Position numbers and translations under genes: made by a program
Assembly: GCA_902760345.1 (NCBI GenBank)
Contig: CACWFY010000028.1
Span: forward strand, 1-33,417
Direction of reading: 5' to 3'
Length of the DNA stretch: 33,417 nt
Source: an uncultured Bacteroidales bacterium
GTDB taxonomy: Bacteria > Bacteroidota > Bacteroidia > Bacteroidales > Bacteroidaceae
Part shown: piece by piece, positions 24,531 through 33,347 of the stretch
How the letters are laid out: every line of letters starts with the position of its first letter
Numbering within the stretch: position 1 is the first letter of the stretch
Notes under the pieces: model-generated
What the model saw: only the letters and a program-made list of their open reading frames with translations
Databases searched by the model: none
What the model was told of the DNA's origin: nothing

Positions 24531-24839
24531 TTATGGCTCGGCTGCCACCATGGGTTCAAACTCGTAGGCTGGTGAGTGATACACCTCAACAATAGGGGCA
24601 TCAAGGGCATCCTCAATAGATACAAGTGTATCTATCGTGAAATTATGCGTGCCACGCATCCACTTACTGATTTCTGCTTCGCTCTTGCCCAATTTCAGAG
24701 CAAGGTCCTTCTGCTTCAGACCCTTTTCTTCCAGAATACCATGTATTCTGTCAACAATACGGAAAGACAAGGCTACTGACCCACGGGTCTCAGGATTCAC
24801 CCGCTTGCGCCTCTCCTCTAATACTCTACTCCTCCTCAT
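24531..24839 (-). CDS. XRE-family helix-turn-helix protein, likely antitoxin
   Basis: 102 residues. The HTH reads GLKQKDLALKLGKSEAEISK, followed by WMRGTHNFTIDTLVSIEDAL (about 38-77), typical XRE/Cro. A basic N-terminus (RRSRVLEERRKR) precedes it. The gene overlaps the end of the upstream 162-residue gene by 14 nt, the usual layout of a HigBA-like toxin-antitoxin operon with the toxin first. It would bind the operon promoter, where two palindromes are present, and neutralise the partner. Confidence 0.75.
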   Translation of the reverse strand: MRRSRVLEERRKRVNPETRGSVALSFRIVDRIHGILEEKGLKQKDLALKLGKSEAEISKWMRGTHNFTIDTLVSIEDALDAPIVEVYHSPAYEFEPMVAAEP

Positions 24840-25314
24840 ATCTCGTAAAATTTAAGTTTCCAACTATTTCTTTATCCACAAGCACCATCGTGCCATCCTT
24901 GATTCTTGACGTTATGAAACGGCTTGTATCCACCAGCAGCTTCACGTATGGAGCCAATGTTTCACTTTCCTGCCAAGTTTTCGCATCCTTTACGCCTCCG
25001 TTCCCGAATACGATAATTTTGTCCGACAATCGCAGACAGTACAATCTGAGTTTATTCCCAACATCAATAGGAATAACTCCAACACCATCGCCATAATTGC
25101 CCTCAGGACGGAAGTAGCGTTCCAAAGCCCCACGTTCTGCAATCTGATCTATCCAAGAAATGATGACATCTATCTCATCGTCATATTCGCAGCCCTCTGG
25201 GAATTTTTCGAAGAAAGCCTCCAGTTCAGTCAACTCCTCTCCAGCCATTCTAATACTGTAGAAGTTAACGTTGTCATATTCTTCCAGCAATTCTATGCTG
25301 TACTCTTGCTTCAT
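24826..25314 (-). CDS. Putative toxin partner of the XRE protein
   Basis: 162 residues. I do not recognise the family with certainty. The middle (NKLRLYCLRLSDKIIVFGNG, about 86-105) resembles the RelE/HigB beta-sheet core, in which basic and aromatic residues follow a KxRxYCxR pattern. The N-terminal half is very acidic (GEELTELEAFFEKF, CEYDDEIDV). It overlaps the antitoxin gene and shares its promoter. If correct, it would be a ribosome-dependent or free mRNase; a regulatory role without toxicity cannot be excluded. Confidence 0.5.
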   Translation of the reverse strand: MKQEYSIELLEEYDNVNFYSIRMAGEELTELEAFFEKFPEGCEYDDEIDVIISWIDQIAERGALERYFRPEGNYGDGVGVIPIDVGNKLRLYCLRLSDKIIVFGNGGVKDAKTWQESETLAPYVKLLVDTSRFITSRIKDGTMVLVDKEIVGNLNFTRYEEE

Positions 25315-25601: not shown

Positions 25602-25802
25602 TAACTTTGCACCCGAAGCATCAAGAGCAGACGCTCGCAAGAGCGGACTCGCCAACCGAGTTATGGAAACCACGGTGGTCAGTACGATGTGGAAGTTATG
25701 ACGAGCCGAACGCAGTATCAAACTCGTTTGAATATTGCTGAGGCGAGGATTTAACTCGATGAAAATCAAGTTACATTATTCACTTCAAAAACATTCCAAG
25801 TT
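25602..25802 (+). promoter_or_regulatory. Promoter and structured leader of the small unknown gene
   Basis: TAACTTTG at 25602-25609 is a full -7 match. The leader is then about 190 nt. It includes CGCTCGCAAGAGCG near 25640 (5-bp stem closed by a GCAA tetraloop), the small palindrome CCACGGTGG near 25675, and a long-range pair CGAGTT / AACTCG (about 25658 and 25754). Such a leader before an 85-codon gene suggests RNA-level control or a dispersed leader family. I do not recognise a known riboswitch. Confidence 0.45.
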
Positions 25803-26127: not shown

Positions 26128-28452
26128 TTATTTTTTAAACGAGATCAACTCCTTGCCTCTTTTAAAAATAGGAGTTCCATACCACTTCTTTTCCCATCCC
26201 TCTTCTAAGGTACCTTCTTTACGTCTACTTTCCATTTCCTCTATTCGGGCAGCCTCAATGATGTTCCTAACATCAACGGGGGTAAAATTACGCGACATCG
26301 GTTTTATATCATACACCACGTAGTTTCCATCAGGCCTGACATAATTCATCTTCCGCATGTACTCTTCGCCACGAAGGTTATGTCCATCTAAACGATAAAC
26401 CTCATACGATGGAGAGTCTGCTCCAATCTCATATAATATAAGATACTTTGCAGAAACAACATCTATATCCCCCTTCTTAAACGCGCCACTACGCTGGGTC
26501 TTGCTACTCTTTCTACGGATGTTATACATCATGTTTTGGTGAATCCATTCCTGTTGATTCTTGTCTTTACGCCAGCCGCCAATAAGGAATACCTCATTGG
26601 CAACCTCTTCAAACTCTATGAATTCTTTATTGGCAGATGGAGAACTATCCAACTCTACCTCCAACTGATATAGTTTGTTAAGTTCATCTGTAGGATTCGT
26701 GTTAAGGGTATAGTGGCGTATGGTGAAGTCTTTGCTCAACTCAGCCAATAACCTATGATTATCTTCATAGAATTTGTCATTGTTTTCCAATCCTACATAC
26801 ATGAATTTCTCATCACTATAAGGACGGAACACTTTACCTATACTACTGCGGAAATGTTTTTCTATGGCCCTGTGCATCCCGTCAAGTATGTTCTCGTCAT
26901 TGTCGCCCTCATCTTTGTCAGCCTTTGGCTTTAGCTGAAGCGAGAAGAATGCATAATCCTTCTTTAGGAAAGATAGTACATTCTTTCTGAAACGTTCTTT
27001 TGTCCTTTCCTTGAACTCTTTCTTTAGCCCATCGTTACTTTGTGCATAAAGAGACAACACGAAAAGGAAATTGATGTCATAGTGTTGCAGCAGAAGAGTG
27101 TCTCTGTCAAACAAGCGATTCTCAAAATGCCTTATGCTCTTAATCCCGTCTCTCGCCTGAAGTTTGTCTTCATAATACCCTCTGTCTTCTTCCTTCTCGC
27201 TAATACGGGCAGAGATAAAGAAGTTAGGAGTTATGCTATACCCGTCGGTATCCTCATCTCTATATATAAGGTATGTCTTTCCTATATTCTTACGTCTTCC
27301 ATGTGCATCCTTTTCATCCTCAAGGAACAATCTCAAATTATGCTGTATTACGTTCCTTGCATACGTATATTGTTTGTATTCAGAATATTCAGCTACGGGC
27401 GCACCAATTCCATAATATTTTGAGTCACCGATATAGTATATCTTGTTTTTGTTTATCAAGCCCTGGTAAGCATATATGTGGTCAACTCTCTTTCCGTCCT
27501 CCTGTGCTTTCAAATCATCTACATCAAGCCCCTTGTCTGACAACAACTCATCTACCATTGATTCGAAAACAACGTGGTAGTTCTCCACAATTAGGTAGTC
27601 TTTATACTGTTTGTCACTATGAATACTCGTTGCTCTCTCAAAGAAATCATTGCATAGTGTCCATAATTGAAGGTCTTTGTCTGAGAAGTACTTGTATCGT
27701 ATCTGTTTTAATCGGACCTCTCCATAATAATCTATCCAATTTTCAAACTCCATATCGGTCAACAGCTCATAGTTGTAATTGATATTTACCTCAAAGCCGA
27801 ATGCCCTTCTCATGTAGTTCAGGATAGAATAGAATATCACTAAAAGTTCTTCATCGAAATTTATCTGTCTTTTCTTGTTTATAAGGCTAAGGTATATTGG
27901 GGTACCATTCTGTATTATTGCACTTTCATGGCTTACAGTCTTTGTCCAATTCACCTTGTTCATGCCACTATGCATATTCTTCACTATAAATGTGAAGTAG
28001 TCAGGATTCTCTTCCTGAAATTTCTGCAACGACAACATGATGTCCAGATAGGTATTCGACACCTTGTCTCCTTGCATGCCAACTGCACTAATATCCTTCA
28101 TCTTTACGATGCTGGACTTGGGGTTCAACCTCACAAACTCTTTCAGACCCCGATAAAGCCAAACGGTAAATCCATACAAGAAACTATAGTCACTTGTACC
28201 ATAGTGGGGGTTCTCCAACAACTTCTCAACATTTACTACTTCATTGGGGTTATACCTGCCGAACAACAGTCCATTTTTGTCAAGCACCACTTTAGGAAGG
28301 AAGAAAACGCAATCAGCAAGCTGTGCGCTATAGTAATAGCCCACATAGTCCTTGCTCTTTGTGCCATCCCTCCACGTCAAGTCACCCATCAGTCGCCCAA
28401 GCGACTTGATAGCTTCAGGACTGTAATGATAACCCTCTATCAGTAGTTTCAT
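26128..28452 (-). CDS. LlaJI/McrC-like restriction nuclease subunit (R2)
   Basis: 774 residues. About residues 150-350 resemble the LlaJI restriction nuclease family: NWTKTVSHESAIIQNGTPIY, VIVE-like FESMVDELL (Glu297), then RVDHIYAY (Asp324) and YYIGDSKYY (Asp343, Lys345), a plausible PD-(D/E)xK active site. A second half of about 400 residues has no motif I know, except a late GGWRKD and YVVYDIKPM, and makes the protein large for this role. It would cut DNA when driven by the McrB-like motor. Its start overlaps the motor gene's stop by 4 nt (ATGA), so the two are translated together. Last gene of the operon. Confidence 0.8.
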   Translation of the reverse strand: MKLLIEGYHYSPEAIKSLGRLMGDLTWRDGTKSKDYVGYYYSAQLADCVFFLPKVVLDKNGLLFGRYNPNEVVNVEKLLENPHYGTSDYSFLYGFTVWLYRGLKEFVRLNPKSSIVKMKDISAVGMQGDKVSNTYLDIMLSLQKFQEENPDYFTFIVKNMHSGMNKVNWTKTVSHESAIIQNGTPIYLSLINKKRQINFDEELLVIFYSILNYMRRAFGFEVNINYNYELLTDMEFENWIDYYGEVRLKQIRYKYFSDKDLQLWTLCNDFFERATSIHSDKQYKDYLIVENYHVVFESMVDELLSDKGLDVDDLKAQEDGKRVDHIYAYQGLINKNKIYYIGDSKYYGIGAPVAEYSEYKQYTYARNVIQHNLRLFLEDEKDAHGRRKNIGKTYLIYRDEDTDGYSITPNFFISARISEKEEDRGYYEDKLQARDGIKSIRHFENRLFDRDTLLLQHYDINFLFVLSLYAQSNDGLKKEFKERTKERFRKNVLSFLKKDYAFFSLQLKPKADKDEGDNDENILDGMHRAIEKHFRSSIGKVFRPYSDEKFMYVGLENNDKFYEDNHRLLAELSKDFTIRHYTLNTNPTDELNKLYQLEVELDSSPSANKEFIEFEEVANEVFLIGGWRKDKNQQEWIHQNMMYNIRRKSSKTQRSGAFKKGDIDVVSAKYLILYEIGADSPSYEVYRLDGHNLRGEEYMRKMNYVRPDGNYVVYDIKPMSRNFTPVDVRNIIEAARIEEMESRRKEGTLEEGWEKKWYGTPIFKRGKELISFKK

Positions 28453-30234: not shown

Positions 30235-31371
30235 TTATAGTTGTTTTAAGAGCTGTTCAACAATAACTGTAATTAATCTTGATGGAATACCTTCCCCTAT
30301 CACTTTTCTGATAAAGGTTTCTTTTGCCCATATCGGTATTTGCCAGTCAAGAGGAAGTGAAGAAACTATTAGTAGTTCATATATCGATAATACCCTAGGG
30401 TCAGAATATAGAATCTCTCCATTTTGTTCGTATGGTCTTCCTGGATGAACGCATGCGAGCGAAGATATGACTCCATTGTTTTGCGTAATAGTTCTTGAAG
30501 GTTTTTCCCATGCCATCCTTCTGTAATGATTATGATGTGCCACAATATGCACCCCTCCTTCTTTTTGTGGGTAATAAACAGGATTATATATAGCAGACTT
30601 GCCACTAGGTGTATGCATCATCCATTCTACCTGTTTCCACGAGTGTGTAGGAGGGTAATGCCATTTTGATATTTTTAGACCTTCTTCCTTCTTCTTCTCA
30701 AAATTTGGAAACTTCTCTAAAGTAAAATCTAAACCTTCTCGTAACATCGGGTCTAAACTTGGTAAGTTTCCTATTGCATCACGAAGAGTTACCACAGGCT
30801 CTTTGTCAGGAAATGTCCATGTAATGTTTATGTCTCTCCTTACGAGCAAATATATGTTTCTTTCTCTCATTTGGGGAATCCCATGATCCATTGCTTTAAT
30901 GAGACTCTCTTCATTAAAGCAATAATCGCATAGAACACTTTTCAAATAATCAGGGATAAGCATTACCTCCCCATTAATAACGACCTTTGTATGCAGTATA
31001 GTTGGAACATTCTCGATAATAGCGAATTCTGGTTTTACCCTTCGTATAACGTCAACAGCATGAGTTATTAATTGGTTGCGTTCGTCAAATTCTAGTCTAT
31101 TACCAGCTTCACTCATTCCTTGACAGGGAGGTGTTGCAAGGATGAAATTGACATTACTCTCTATTGCTTTGTTCACAATAAGAGTACGTGTTTCGTCATT
31201 TGTTATATCACCCTGTAACATCTTTGTTTTTGGATGAACACATGAATAGAAATCAGCCCTATCTTTCAACAGTTCATTGGCATATATCATTTCCACGTCG
31301 CGTAAAGCATCGAGACCAGCTTCTGCTATGCCTACATTAGAGAACAGTGACAATCCTCGCAACTTCTTCAT
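30235..31371 (-). CDS. C5-cytosine DNA methyltransferase 2 of LlaJI-type system
   Basis: 378 residues. C5-methyltransferase motifs are present in order: I (LSLFSNVGIAEAGLD), IV (ATPPCQGMS with the catalytic Cys), VI (AIIENVP), VIII (PQMRERNIY), a target-recognition region around 200-300, IX (PSRTITQNNG) and X (VIGEGIPSRL). The FSNVG form of motif I is unusual against the common FAGIGG. LlaJI-type systems have two such enzymes, one per strand of an asymmetric site (GACGC in LlaJI). The start ATG overlaps the stop of the first methyltransferase (ATGA). Low GC compared with the flanking housekeeping genes. Confidence 0.88.
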   Translation of the reverse strand: MKKLRGLSLFSNVGIAEAGLDALRDVEMIYANELLKDRADFYSCVHPKTKMLQGDITNDETRTLIVNKAIESNVNFILATPPCQGMSEAGNRLEFDERNQLITHAVDVIRRVKPEFAIIENVPTILHTKVVINGEVMLIPDYLKSVLCDYCFNEESLIKAMDHGIPQMRERNIYLLVRRDINITWTFPDKEPVVTLRDAIGNLPSLDPMLREGLDFTLEKFPNFEKKKEEGLKISKWHYPPTHSWKQVEWMMHTPSGKSAIYNPVYYPQKEGGVHIVAHHNHYRRMAWEKPSRTITQNNGVISSLACVHPGRPYEQNGEILYSDPRVLSIYELLIVSSLPLDWQIPIWAKETFIRKVIGEGIPSRLITVIVEQLLKQL

Positions 31372-32516
31372 TTTGGTAAGTTTTTAAATAGTTTTTGAAC
31401 GAACAAAGGTGGAATACCTTCGCCAATTATTCGTCTGACAAAAGCTTCTCCTGTGTTTGGTGGTAGTGGCCAACTGTCAGGAATACTCATGATTCGCATT
31501 AACTCATATAGAGTCAAAGTCCTCGCATCAGAATAAATTACTTCATCATTTTCATCCTTACCAATCAATCTACCAGGATGAACATTTCCTTGAGATGATA
31601 TCTTGCGATTATCCATTGTTACAGTAAAGGCTGGTGTATCCCATCTTTGGCGAGAATAGGTATTGTGATACCCTTTAACGAAAGTGCCATCATCTTTCAT
31701 TGGCCTATGTTGGGGACTGTTATCAAAGGCACTCTTACCGGTTGGAGTATATTGCATCGCCTTTACCTGCCTGTATATGTGTACTGGTGGAATGTTCCAT
31801 CTTGAAATAGCCAAAGCTTTTAACTTACGTTCTTCATAGAGTGGAAATAATTTCTTGAAGTCATCTTCGGATAAATCTTTAACAAAAGGGTCTATACAGG
31901 GAATCCAACCTATAGCATCTTCCATTGTTACCTTCGTTTTATCCTTTGGAGGTATTTGCCATTTTGAACTCATGTCCTTTCTTGTCATAAGGATTATCAC
32001 CCTTTCTCTAGATTGGGGGACACAAAAGTCTTCTGTGTTGATAATTTCAATTGATATGCTGTAATCAACTGATAGTTCCTTTTTGATTATTTCTGTCAAT
32101 AGTTTCCTGTTCCCTTCGTATTCGATTTTGGTGTTTATATAATTAGGTACATTCTCTATTGCGACGTATTGAGGCGACAAGTCTTTTATAGCTTGTATTA
32201 CAGGAAGTGTCAGGTAATTCCTTTCATCATCTTCATCTTGTTGTCCAACTGTGCTCATTCCCTGACAAGGTGGGGTGGCTAGAATTACATTTACTCCTTC
32301 TTTTTCAGATTGTCTTATAATCGATTGATATATGTTAGGGTTCGTTATATCCCCACAAATCATCTTGCTTTGGGGATATATCTTTTGGTATAAATCGGCT
32401 CTTCTCTTAATAAGCTCATTAGCAACGGGTACAGCCACATTTATATCTTCCAGCATTGCTTCTGCAACACCTATATTGGCGAACAGAGATAAAACCTTAT
32501 ATTTTTTCTTTGACAT
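31368..32516 (-). CDS. C5-cytosine DNA methyltransferase 1 of LlaJI-type system
   Basis: 382 residues from ATG 32516. Motifs: I (LSLFANIGVAEAMLE), IV (ATPPCQGMS), VI (VAIENVP), VIII (PQSRERVIIL), IX (PAFTVTMDN) and X (IIGEGIPPLF). It is a divergent paralogue of the next gene, differing most in the recognition region, as expected if each methylates one strand. A TTG at 32573 opens a longer frame, but ATG 32516 is preceded by GAGAGGG at 7 nt spacing, and the extra codons would pass through a terminator hairpin. First gene of the four-gene operon, behind an attenuator-like leader. Confidence 0.88.
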   Translation of the reverse strand: MSKKKYKVLSLFANIGVAEAMLEDINVAVPVANELIKRRADLYQKIYPQSKMICGDITNPNIYQSIIRQSEKEGVNVILATPPCQGMSTVGQQDEDDERNYLTLPVIQAIKDLSPQYVAIENVPNYINTKIEYEGNRKLLTEIIKKELSVDYSISIEIINTEDFCVPQSRERVIILMTRKDMSSKWQIPPKDKTKVTMEDAIGWIPCIDPFVKDLSEDDFKKLFPLYEERKLKALAISRWNIPPVHIYRQVKAMQYTPTGKSAFDNSPQHRPMKDDGTFVKGYHNTYSRQRWDTPAFTVTMDNRKISSQGNVHPGRLIGKDENDEVIYSDARTLTLYELMRIMSIPDSWPLPPNTGEAFVRRIIGEGIPPLFVQKLFKNLPK

Positions 32517-32549
32517 GAAAAAGCCCTCTCTTCGTTTCGAAAAGGGGGC
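32517..32549 (-). terminator. Attenuator-like terminator that hides the first methyltransferase RBS
   Basis: In transcript direction GCCCCCTTTTCG (32549 to 32538), loop AAA, CGAAGAGAGGGC (32534 to 32523): 11 of 12 positions pair (one C/A mismatch, one wobble). TTTTTC follows, then the ATG at 32516. The likely ribosome site GAGAGGG is in the right arm. The hairpin could therefore stop transcription before the operon or block translation of the methyltransferase. Confidence 0.7.
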
Positions 32550-32565
32550 GTGGTAAATGAAGTGC

Positions 32566-32685
32566 TTAACCAAGGCTTAGGACAGCCCACATCAGACAAC
32601 TATCACTCAGTCCACGCCCATATGAGCGAGAACATCCTGAAGCCTGTCTGACTGATGTGTTTCCTGAGGTCCTAATTCTGGTTAA
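32566..32685 (-). promoter_or_regulatory. Leader hairpin with antiterminator segment
   Basis: Three blocks pair across 120 nt: TTAACCA (32566-32572) with TGGTTAA (32679-32685), TTAGGAC (32577-32583) with GTCCTAA (32669-32675), and CACATCAG (32588-32595) with CTGATGTG (32652-32659). Its loop contains CCACGCCC (32612-32619, plus strand), the exact complement of GGGCGTGG (32546-32553), which overlaps the left arm of the terminator. Pairing of these two would open the terminator, so the two folds exclude each other. I know no riboswitch class that matches. Confidence 0.6.
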
Positions 32686-32759
32686 TCAGTCAATCAAGGA
32701 TGTCAAAGACTCTGTATTTCCTTATTCGTTATTTTTGTTTACGTTCTCTTCTAATTAAG

Positions 32760-32808: not shown

Positions 32809-33112
32809 ACAAATAAAAAACGCGGGTGCTTGCATCTGCCTGTTCGATATTCAGGCCTACCACAGCCTTAGAGATAAACAGACAGAGAAACATCCCACGT
32901 TGAGGTATATAGACACCCGTAAAGTGTGCGTTGAGGATACCCGACCCTCGCAGCACACTACGGAGAGTATATACTACACCCCGTGGAGTTACCTCTTCAA
33001 TGTTTTTGATCTCTAATCGATTGTGGTAGTTCGAATATCCAAAAACAAAGCGACGTAACGCCTTCTAATATGTAGTGCTCCACCCATCGGCTCCATCATC
33101 CTCAGATGACAT
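32807..33112 (-). pseudogene. Possible small gene with one in-frame TAG
   Basis: From ATG 33112 the frame reads SSEDDGADGWSTTY, then TAG (33065-33067), then 85 open codons to a TAG at 32807-32809, including RRFVFGYSNYHNRLEIKN and GLNIEQADASTRVFYL. The composition after the stop is protein-like. It has no ATG until late, so it would need readthrough, re-initiation or a lost start. The same bases fold into the RNA described for 32812-33137, and the opposite strand is open too, so the frame may be chance. Confidence 0.3.
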
Positions 33113-33137
33113 CGCTGCCGTAACAGGCAGATGCAAA
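32812..33137 (-). ncRNA. Putative structured RNA of about 325 nt upstream of the restriction operon
   Basis: A promoter at 33140-33171 starts transcription near 33137. The 5' end TTGCATCTGCCTGTT (33136 to 33122) pairs perfectly over 15 bp with the 3' part AACAGGCAGATGCAA (32844 to 32830). TTTTTT follows at 32820 to 32815 after a GC-rich CACCCGCG. Inner helices include TCATC-TGAG-GATGA, GTTTTTG with CAAAAAC, GTATATA with TATATAC, and CCGTA-GTGTGC with GCACAC-TT-TACGG, giving a rod with side arms. It has no RNase P, tmRNA, SRP or 6S signature that I know. It may be a separate RNA or the front of the operon leader. Confidence 0.5.
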
Positions 33138-33139
33138 TG

Positions 33140-33171
33140 CAAAGATATAGAATATTTTTGAAACAAACAAG
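33140..33171 (-). promoter_or_regulatory. Promoter upstream of the structured RNA
   Basis: Minus strand: TTG (33168-33170), a 20-bp spacer, TATCTTTG (33140-33147), a full -7 match. It is the best promoter upstream of the restriction operon; between it and the first methyltransferase only a weak AGTCTTTG near 32710 was seen. Confidence 0.55.
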
Positions 33172-33227
33172 GAAACTACAAGATATTTTCAAGGAATAGC
33201 TCGCTGATAGCTCAAGAAAAAGGACAT

Positions 33228-33304
33228 TTTCGCAAAAAGACCTAACTGTTACCTAAATCGCTGGGAACGCCTTTGTAGAAAGGGGATACAGAAAGGTAAC
33301 TCTC
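33228..33304 (-). repeat. 77-bp dispersed repeat, right copy
   Basis: Inverted copy of 3491-3567 with 71 of 77 identical bases and no gap. It is followed at once by the hairpin of 33294-33330 and then the Abi_2-like fragment, so this copy has extra palindromic sequence that the left one mostly lacks. Confidence 0.75.
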
Positions 33305-33347
33305 AGAAAAGACTTACTTGAGAGTTACCTGACACCTAACTGTTAGG
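33294..33347. repeat. Palindromes at the edge of the right repeat copy
   Basis: AGGTAACTCTC (33294-33304) pairs perfectly with GAGAGTTACCT (33320-33330). CCTAACTGTTAGG (33335-33347) is a second, self-complementary block. CCTAACTGTTA also occurs in the 77-bp unit, so this looks like the terminal region of a REP/MITE-like element. Confidence 0.55.

What the first reader, a model, noticed from the sequence alone, without database searches (positions are those of the whole stretch)
32517..32685. Attenuator with mutually exclusive folds ahead of the restriction-modification operon
A terminator hairpin (11 of 12 positions paired, TTTTTC tail) ends directly before the ATG of the first methyltransferase and includes its likely ribosome site. 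An exact 8-bp complement to the terminator's left arm lies within the loop of an upstream three-block hairpin. The sequence thus has terminator, antiterminator and a third fold that could hold the antiterminator. RNA attenuation controlling methyltransferase and nuclease levels would differ from C-protein or methylation-based control known for restriction systems.
Basis: partly seen in the sequence, partly recalled or inferred. Interest (0 to 1): 0.8.

Follow-up and report, generated by a model that had tools for sequence, protein, structure and literature searches.

The report
RNA switch leader of restriction operons
The stretch in front of this bacterium's DNA-restriction genes encodes a folded RNA that recurs in front of many unrelated restriction and anti-phage genes in gut and rumen Bacteroidales, and it looks like an uncatalogued RNA switch that decides whether those defence genes are read.

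Summary
The leader (minus strand, 32703-32518) is a structured RNA with strong covariation (67 distinct sequences: 97.8% of cells paired; 273 double-change cells against 66.8 in shuffles). The 8-bp antiterminator pairing forms in 528 of 528 cells, with a few compensatory changes. Its 3' partner shares 4 nt with a terminator hairpin found by a simple rule in 60 of 66 leaders. No leader searched reaches a gathering score of any Rfam 15 family.

In 398 genomes of the genus it occurs 68 times in 62 genomes. It precedes non-homologous genes: 61 of 66 readable first genes are restriction-modification or annotated defence genes, and 36 of 38 in a second set. Leaders 98% identical can precede unrelated genes.

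A related RNA lies in tandem upstream (to 33147), with a promoter box before it. Distant relatives occur elsewhere in Bacteroidia, mostly before other genes.

Best reading: a cis-acting, riboswitch-like transcription attenuator of an uncatalogued class. Folds and association are shown by comparison. Transcription, termination, polarity and signal are inferred. In distant relatives the same pairing abuts the U-tract and may itself be the terminator.

The parts
32542..32703 (-). conserved core of the leader RNA
   Evidence: model R1/R2 matches; covariation
32698..32703 (-). 5' strand a (ACATCC), pairs with a' GGATGT
   Evidence: 97.7% of cells paired, 2 of 6 pairs with double changes
32632..32637 (-). 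strand a' (GGATGT)
32679..32685 (-). helix P1, 5' strand (3' strand 32566-32572)
   Evidence: 7 of 7 pairs with double changes
32669..32675 (-). helix P2, 5' strand (3' strand 32577-32583)
   Evidence: 6 of 7 pairs with double changes, 99.8% paired
32644..32659 (-). helix P3 (two parts), 5' strands (3' strands 32588-32599)
   Evidence: 10 of the 11 pairs counted show double changes
32610..32633 (-). hairpin P4, which holds strand b (the 'third fold')
   Evidence: RNAalifold and counts; -10.4 kcal/mol
32612..32619 (-). strand b (GGGCGTGG)
   Evidence: pairs with b' in 528 of 528 cells
32546..32553 (-). strand b' (CCACGCCC); its last 4 bases are the base of the terminator's left arm
32523..32549 (-). 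terminator hairpin T2
   Evidence: 60 of 66 leaders have one at <= -5 kcal/mol with a T-rich tail (no shuffle control)
32518..32522 (-). T-tract of the terminator, directly before the start codon
   Evidence: sequence
32822..33056 (-). upstream tandem RNA ('U'), core matched by the same model
   Evidence: R2 match E 7e-7, 38.1 bits; R2's training set held one such element (L103), first found with R1
33122..33136 (-). 15-nt arm closing U; the other arm is 32830-32844
   Evidence: perfect inverted repeat
32815..32820 (-). T-tract at the end of U
   Evidence: sequence
33140..33147 (-). TATCTTTG, Bacteroidota-type -7 promoter box (consensus TAnnTTTG recalled)
   Evidence: box 400-560 nt upstream of the leader in 24 of 33 U-bearing loci, 2.5 expected from shuffles
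31368..32516 (-). first C5-cytosine methyltransferase
   Evidence: PF00145; MTase_II PDLC03384
30235..31371 (-). second C5-cytosine methyltransferase
   Evidence: PF00145; PDLC03384
28449..30233 (-). AAA-type restriction subunit (McrB-like)
   Evidence: AAA_5; REase_II PDLC03547
26128..28452 (-). putative second restriction subunit, no family match
   Evidence: no match; assigned from operon position only

Best explanation
The element is a cis-acting, riboswitch-like transcription attenuator of an uncatalogued structured-RNA class, used as a common gate for restriction-modification and related defence operons in Prevotella-like Bacteroidales. Transcription starts upstream of the leader, here before the tandem RNA U. 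The leader folds into one long arm (P1-P2-P3) capped by hairpin P4, with a 5' strand (a) paired beside P4. Strand b, the 3' side of P4, can leave P4 to pair with b' just past P1. When b pairs with b', the overlapping terminator hairpin cannot form and RNA polymerase reads on into the methyltransferase and nuclease genes. When b stays in P4, the terminator forms and transcription stops just before the start codon. Some cellular signal (ligand, protein, trans RNA or elongation speed) sets the balance. Shown by comparison: the folds, their overlap, their conservation and the association with defence genes. Inferred: transcription, termination, the direction of the switch and the signal.
For: Covariation in 67 distinct sequences: 97.8% paired, 26 of 38 pairs with double changes, 273 double-change cells against 66.8 in shuffles, 0 of 500 shuffles as high, slid controls at most 42.7% paired. 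b:b' pairs in 528 of 528 cells, 3 of 8 pairs with double changes. Terminator by a simple rule in 60 of 66, starting at the GCCC end of b' in 57 of those 60. In L121, L122 and L125 a C-to-U change in b' keeps b:b' as G-U and is matched by an A in the terminator's 3' arm. On the sense strand G-U pairs outnumber A-C mismatches 260 to 31 over the named helices, 85 to 30 without P4, which points to RNA of that strand. The promoter box TAnnTTTG lies within 120 nt of the leader in 17 of 30 loci without U (2.5 expected) and 400-560 nt away in 24 of 33 with U (2.5 expected), 0 of 300 shuffles as high in each. Association: 61 of 66 and 36 of 38 first genes are restriction-modification or annotated defence genes. 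No leader searched reaches an Rfam 15 gathering score.
Against: No transcript, terminated product or reporter result was available. In distant relatives b' is followed directly by a U-tract and b:b' is a long helix, so there it looks like the terminator stem. A few window-clade leaders (L111, L115, L036) also have T-runs right after b'. Four of 66 leaders gave no terminator by the rule used (L105, L034, L108, L110; L034 has a hairpin with only a short T-run), and L113 and L115 only weak ones. b is nearly invariant, so its covariation rests on few events. No ligand or trans factor is known.
Confidence: 0.72

Rival explanations
1. Same RNA, opposite polarity: b:b' is the terminator stem, as it appears to be in the wider superfamily, and P4 plus P3 is the antiterminator. 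The local hairpin before the ATG is a second terminator or a start-site blocker.
For: In distant relatives b' is followed directly by T-runs and b:b' is a long helix: own pairs average -22.6 kcal/mol against -15.8 for pairs swapped between sequences, 0 of 10000 permutations as good, own pair in the best tenth for 27 of 44, with 44 of 53 sequences usable. In U of the window the equivalent stem, read by eye, ends in GTTTTTT.
Against: In the window and its close relatives b' is followed by CCTTTTC, a poor U-tract, and a separate hairpin with a good U-tract uses part of b'.
Confidence: 0.25
2. The leader is mainly a small RNA gene (a stable RNA of about 170-200 nt ending at the terminator) that acts in trans; the downstream gene is expressed from read-through.
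For: Compact fold with its own terminator. Promoter boxes 29-30 nt upstream in L117 and L036.
Against: In many close relatives the T-tract and the start codon are separated by a base or two, and the first codons (MSKKK-like) are part of the conserved stretch. Conserved competing folds at the terminator fit a switch better.
Confidence: 0.12
3. The leader is conserved chiefly as a DNA recombination anchor through which defence cassettes are swapped.
For: 113 leader pairs are at least 90% identical, and 88 of them precede first proteins under 35% identical or under 50% covered; for example L032 (MutH/Sau3AI-like) against L073 and L075 (C5 methyltransferases) at 98.1% leader identity.
Against: Compensatory changes in P1-P3 and the excess of G-U over A-C show selection on RNA folding, which recombination alone would not produce. 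Both roles may coexist.
Confidence: 0.08
4. Ribosome-mediated attenuation through a short upstream reading frame.
For: An ATG lies in GGATGT in 49 of 65 leaders tested.
Against: Frames from that ATG range from 4 to over 100 codons (10 in the window), 16 leaders lack it, and only 10 leaders have an ATG frame of 10 or more codons starting between -60 and +50.
Confidence: 0.05

Closest known systems
Riboswitches and attenuators with overlapping terminator and antiterminator (general kind, recalled)
   Same: Likely 5' position, conserved arm, a pairing that excludes a terminator, U-tract before the gene
   Different: No Rfam 15 family matches, ligand unknown, and the genes behind it are defence genes of unrelated families
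Known control of restriction-modification systems: C proteins, methyltransferase repression, promoter methylation, antisense RNA (reviews PMC3874152 and PMC12707154, passages found by word search)
   Same: Purpose: to balance methyltransferase and nuclease
   Different: Those act by DNA-binding proteins, methylation or antisense transcripts. The word search gave riboswitch 0 and 0, attenuat* 1 (context not shown) and 0. PMC12707154 does mention antisense RNAs or hairpins that limit access to REase start sites
AbiF with RNA RCd22 (PMC12373285, abstract and outline seen)
   Same: Structured RNA beside an anti-phage gene that lowers its expression
   Different: There the RNA binds the toxic protein, like a type III antitoxin. 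Here the downstream proteins are unrelated to each other, so a shared protein partner encoded by them is unlikely
FopS sRNA family of Bacteroides (PMC11697453, passages seen)
   Same: Multicopy structured RNA family in Bacteroidota
   Different: FopS is a single-stranded 5' stretch plus a terminator hairpin; this RNA has a multi-helix arm directly before genes
LlaJI restriction-modification system
   Same: Two C5 methyltransferases and an McrB-like AAA subunit in one operon
   Different: The leader is not a LlaJI trait: it precedes many other systems

Membership tests
Any Rfam 15 family (4227 models) | score at or above the gathering score on the leader | tested here: not met
   Best match on the leader: PyrG leader, 21.8 bits against 65; none on the leaders, which include 8 and 20 other loci
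T-box leader | match to the T-box covariance model | tested here: not met
   Not among the matches up to E 10 on the 251-base leader
Transcription attenuator / riboswitch (kind) | conserved mutually exclusive terminator and antiterminator folds | tested here: met
Transcription attenuator / riboswitch (kind) | lies in the 5' untranslated region, start upstream | tested here: inconclusive
   Promoter boxes upstream well above shuffles; no transcript data
Transcription attenuator / riboswitch (kind) | condition-dependent termination, or ligand binding | not testable with these tools
   needs transcription and binding assays
Ribosome-mediated attenuator | conserved leader peptide | tested here: not met
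C-protein-controlled restriction-modification system | C gene with HTH upstream of or within the operon | tested here: not met
   No ORF of 80 aa or more on the operon strand between the leader and the methyltransferase. The HTH gene 24531-24839 lies beyond the operon and matches PDC-M64
LlaJI-type system | two C5 methyltransferases plus McrB-like subunit | tested here: met
LlaJI-type system | McrC-like nuclease subunit | tested here: inconclusive
   26128-28452 is in the right position but has no family match

The most novel reading that the evidence does not exclude
A large, uncatalogued class of Bacteroidota RNA switches, one branch of which forms a common immune gate: a single RNA design, often in tandem behind its own promoter, sits in front of interchangeable restriction and anti-phage systems and turns them on or off together in response to one cellular signal, so that the defence arsenal behaves as a regulon controlled by RNA.
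Probability: 0.45. Interest if true: 0.93.

Novelty: new variant of a known kind. Interest (0 to 1): 0.85.

Why it matters
How restriction systems avoid killing a new host, and when they are made at all, is usually explained by proteins, methylation or antisense RNA. A shared RNA leader in front of dozens of unrelated systems would give a common, testable control layer. It would let genomes be searched for new defence genes by the leader alone (for example the unknown first genes in L189/L211 and the TPR-MazG-Schlafen-helicase operon in L108), and would add a structured-RNA class in Bacteroidota. It makes two questions testable: what signal turns restriction on, and whether the leader lets defence genes be swapped while regulation is kept.

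Tried and rejected
Tried and rejected: (1) That the leader is a dispersed repeat: one significant match in its own genome, itself; the repeat copies belong to 33341-33138 upstream. (2) That it is carried by phages or plasmids: no match; the one viral match, L233, was dropped as chance because the leader's 5' blocks were not seen before it. (3) Known RNA families. (4) L037 and L038 are short chance matches and were dropped before any count. (5) Ribosome-mediated attenuation. (6) Sigma-70 consensus promoter scan: 2 found, 1.6 expected. (7) The first automatic b:b' test chose some wrong U-tracts (empty strands give the 100000 values); it was replaced. Four of the 35 loci (L240, L241, L256, L259) were left out before both tests, and could not place 9 of the remaining 53. 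(8) Literature: ten searches listed no description of this RNA; the library is open-access PubMed Central only. Supplementary tables of PMC8040213, which lists thousands of candidate RNAs, could not be read, so the RNA may be listed there or elsewhere.

Limits: R2's training set includes one U element (L103), so R2 hits on U are partly circular; the first hit on U in L103, with R1, is not. Alignment A4 was fitted to the model's structure, which favours it; A2 was made by MAFFT without structure and agrees. The terminator rule had no shuffle control. In the first-gene counts, L121, L124 and L125 are counted by homology to tested proteins, L174 on a weak restriction-enzyme match, and L115 on a match just above its cut-off. 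Of 44 weak matches, 22 were fetched. Of the distant relatives only six downstream genes were run against libraries (L127, L139, L237, L242, L254, and L015 of the own genome) besides L128; the rest were judged from the printed start of the protein.

Full report
WHAT IS THERE. On the minus strand, directly before the ATG (32516) of the first methyltransferase, lies the hairpin 32549-32523 followed by TTTTTC. The base of its left arm is the last four bases of the 8-mer CCACGCCC (b', 32553-32546), whose exact complement GGGCGTGG (b, 32619-32612) sits inside an upstream hairpin arm. The 190-nt leader folds better than all 200 shuffles; the 135-nt core alone is beaten by 2 of 200. The four genes downstream form a LlaJI-like operon: two C5 methyltransferases, an McrB-like AAA subunit, and a fourth gene without family match.

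CONSERVATION. A DNA search in 60 relatives gave matches in 10 genomes at E <= 0.01, the own genome included; two of the ten (L037, L038) are chance matches. The rest stand before different genes. A covariance model R1 from nine leaders was run on 398 genomes of the genus: 94 have a match at E <= 0.01. Of these matches I treat 68 in 62 genomes (69 bits or more) as the leader itself (recounted); 44 weaker ones (22-40 bits) are set apart. A pattern scan of named genomes gave 84 stretches, 80 of them listed as loci. Titles name Prevotella, Xylanibacter, Alloprevotella, Duncaniella and unnamed Bacteroidaceae or Bacteroidales, most of them metagenome assemblies. They include the genomes of Xylanibacter brevis ATCC 19188 and Prevotella sp. 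tc2-28, whose titles do not mark them as metagenome-assembled, so an assembly artefact is unlikely. Of 81 loci examined, the viral one included, 40 duplicate loci already held.

STRUCTURE. On nine MAFFT-aligned leaders, 39 pairs were counted: 98.0% paired, 27 double-change cells against 8.2 in shuffles. RNAalifold alone predicts the same arm P1-P4. On 67 distinct sequences: 97.8% paired, 273 double-change cells against 66.8, and partners slid by 1-3 columns pair in at most 42.7% of cells. P1, P2 and P3 vary with compensation. P4 is rich in G-U and varies mostly on one side. The 5' strand ACATCC pairs with GGATGT next to P4 in 97.7% of cells. The b:b' pairing is intact in 528 of 528 cells with three doubly changed pairs, for example L105 (GCGCGG with CCGCGC) and L120 (GGGAGCGTGG with CCACGCTCCC). 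G-U pairs outnumber A-C mismatches 260 to 31 on the sense strand (summed; 85 to 30 without P4), so the selected molecule is most likely RNA of the sense strand. The terminator is present by a simple rule in 60 of 66 leaders and starts at the GCCC end of b' in 57 of the 60. In the window the energies are comparable: P4 -10.4, b:b' (8 bp) -15.9, terminator -14.0 kcal/mol.

WHAT IT STANDS BEFORE. Of the 68 leaders, 66 have a readable first gene. By Pfam 43 are C5 methyltransferases and one is a D12 adenine methyltransferase. Seven are nucleases by Pfam: BstXI type twice, Alw26I, MjaI, MutH/Sau3AI type, HNH_2, and an ICEA match just above its cut-off. Nine are PADLOC type II restriction enzymes: six tested and three (L121, L124, L125) by homology to tested ones. 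One is AIPR. That makes 61 of 66. In two more (L116, L092) a restriction or methyltransferase gene is second or third. The last three (L105, L108, L110) begin with a TPR protein; in L108 a MazG-like protein and a Schlafen-group-3 helicase follow. In a second set of 38 first genes from the pattern scan, 30 are C5 methyltransferases, one each D12, Alw26I, MutH and AIPR/MzaE, one an AAA protein with a weak restriction-enzyme match (L174), one a restriction enzyme (L159), and two are unknown (L189 and L211, alike in sequence; no Pfam or PADLOC match). So 97 of 104 first genes are restriction-modification or annotated defence genes. Leaders and genes reassort: among 113 leader pairs at least 90% identical, 88 precede proteins under 35% identical or under 50% covered. 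In many close relatives the codons for MSKKK belong to the shared stretch.

TANDEM RNA AND PROMOTER. R1 also found, in L103, a second weak match just upstream of the leader. R2, trained on a set including that one, finds a second element upstream in 33 of 64 loci, in the window at 32822-33056. There it ends in a T-tract and is closed by a perfect 15-bp repeat. The TAnnTTTG box (Bacteroidota promoter, consensus recalled) lies 400-560 nt upstream of the leader in 24 of these 33 loci, in the window at 33147-33140, against 2.5 expected from shuffles. Among 30 loci without the element and with enough upstream DNA, 17 have the box within 120 nt of the leader, against 2.5 expected. In the 33 loci with the element none has it there. 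Transcription through the leader is therefore likely.

SUPERFAMILY. Weak and distant matches share the same plan, read by eye: arm P1-P3 with conserved junctions, a GCGTGG-type hairpin, and a downstream strand complementary to its 3' side before a T-run. R2 matches occur in 22 of 295 genomes of the order and 8 of 395 of the class, the own genome included in both. The complementarity is specific to each sequence in the aggregate: 0 of 10000 permutations as good, own pair in the best tenth for 27 of 44. Most printed first proteins look like lipoproteins or unknowns. Among the few that I ran against libraries are restriction or candidate defence genes: L127 Tsp45I, L254 EcoRI-type methyltransferase, L139 type II methyltransferase, L242 (a full-strength leader, 132 bits, in another family) and L015 with DUF2971 genes that match candidate system PDC-S31, and L237 with a weak DrmC match. 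These were picked for looking like defence genes, so they are no sample. The strong defence association is a trait of the window's branch. No Rfam family reaches its gathering score on the relatives searched.

MECHANISM. The economical reading is a riboswitch-like attenuator: b in P4 lets the terminator form, and b with b' prevents it. Caution: in distant relatives b' lies directly before the T-run, so there b:b' itself looks like the terminator. The window's branch has a poorer T-run there and a local hairpin further on, which would reverse the role of b:b'. I give the antiterminator role about 0.6 within the switch reading. The signal is unknown; because the downstream proteins are unrelated, feedback by the gene products themselves is unlikely.

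KNOWN OR NEW. Two reviews of restriction-system regulation (passages found by word search) describe C proteins, methyltransferase repressors, promoter methylation and antisense RNA, plus hairpins limiting nuclease translation. The search gave no riboswitch hit in either and one attenuat* hit (PMC3874152, context not shown). In PMC8040213 and PMC2864571 a word search gave 0 for restriction and 0 for methyltransferase in the main texts; supplements were not read. FopS RNAs have a different build. The kind (attenuator) is known; the RNA class and its use before interchangeable defence systems appear to be new, within the limits of the library searched.

Noticed in passing
window 25613-25735 (+): SAM-I/IV riboswitch-like sequence, 37 bits against a gathering score of 41.1, with an 85-aa open frame after it, facing the end of the restriction operon; perhaps a remnant.
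   Followed up: no
window 24531-25314 (-): Two-gene unit downstream of the restriction operon that matches PADLOC candidate defence system PDC-M64 (HTH gene 24531-24839 and partner 24826-25314).
   Followed up: partly
window 33138-33341 (-): Dispersed repeat, pieces 75-95% identical at about ten other places of the genome (E below 1e-4), ending at the promoter box of the tandem RNA.
   Followed up: partly
L015:1501-2841 (own genome, contig C12): The same repeat end and promoter box leads into another RNA of similar look (by eye; not found by R2) and a DUF2971 gene that matches PDC-S31, as does the gene behind the strong leader L242.
   Followed up: partly
L105, L108, L110: Leader precedes an operon beginning with a TPR protein, in L108 followed by a MazG-like protein and a Schlafen-group-3 helicase: a possible undescribed defence system.
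   Followed up: partly
L189:2642-3802 (Duncaniella) and L211:1-603 (Bacteroidaceae assembly): Alike first genes behind the leader with no Pfam or PADLOC match: candidates for an unknown restriction or defence protein.
   Followed up: partly
L133-L138, L141, L143-L146, L238: A separate branch of the superfamily with a near-constant ACCGCC...GGCGGTA core before diverse short, lipoprotein-like genes.
   Followed up: no
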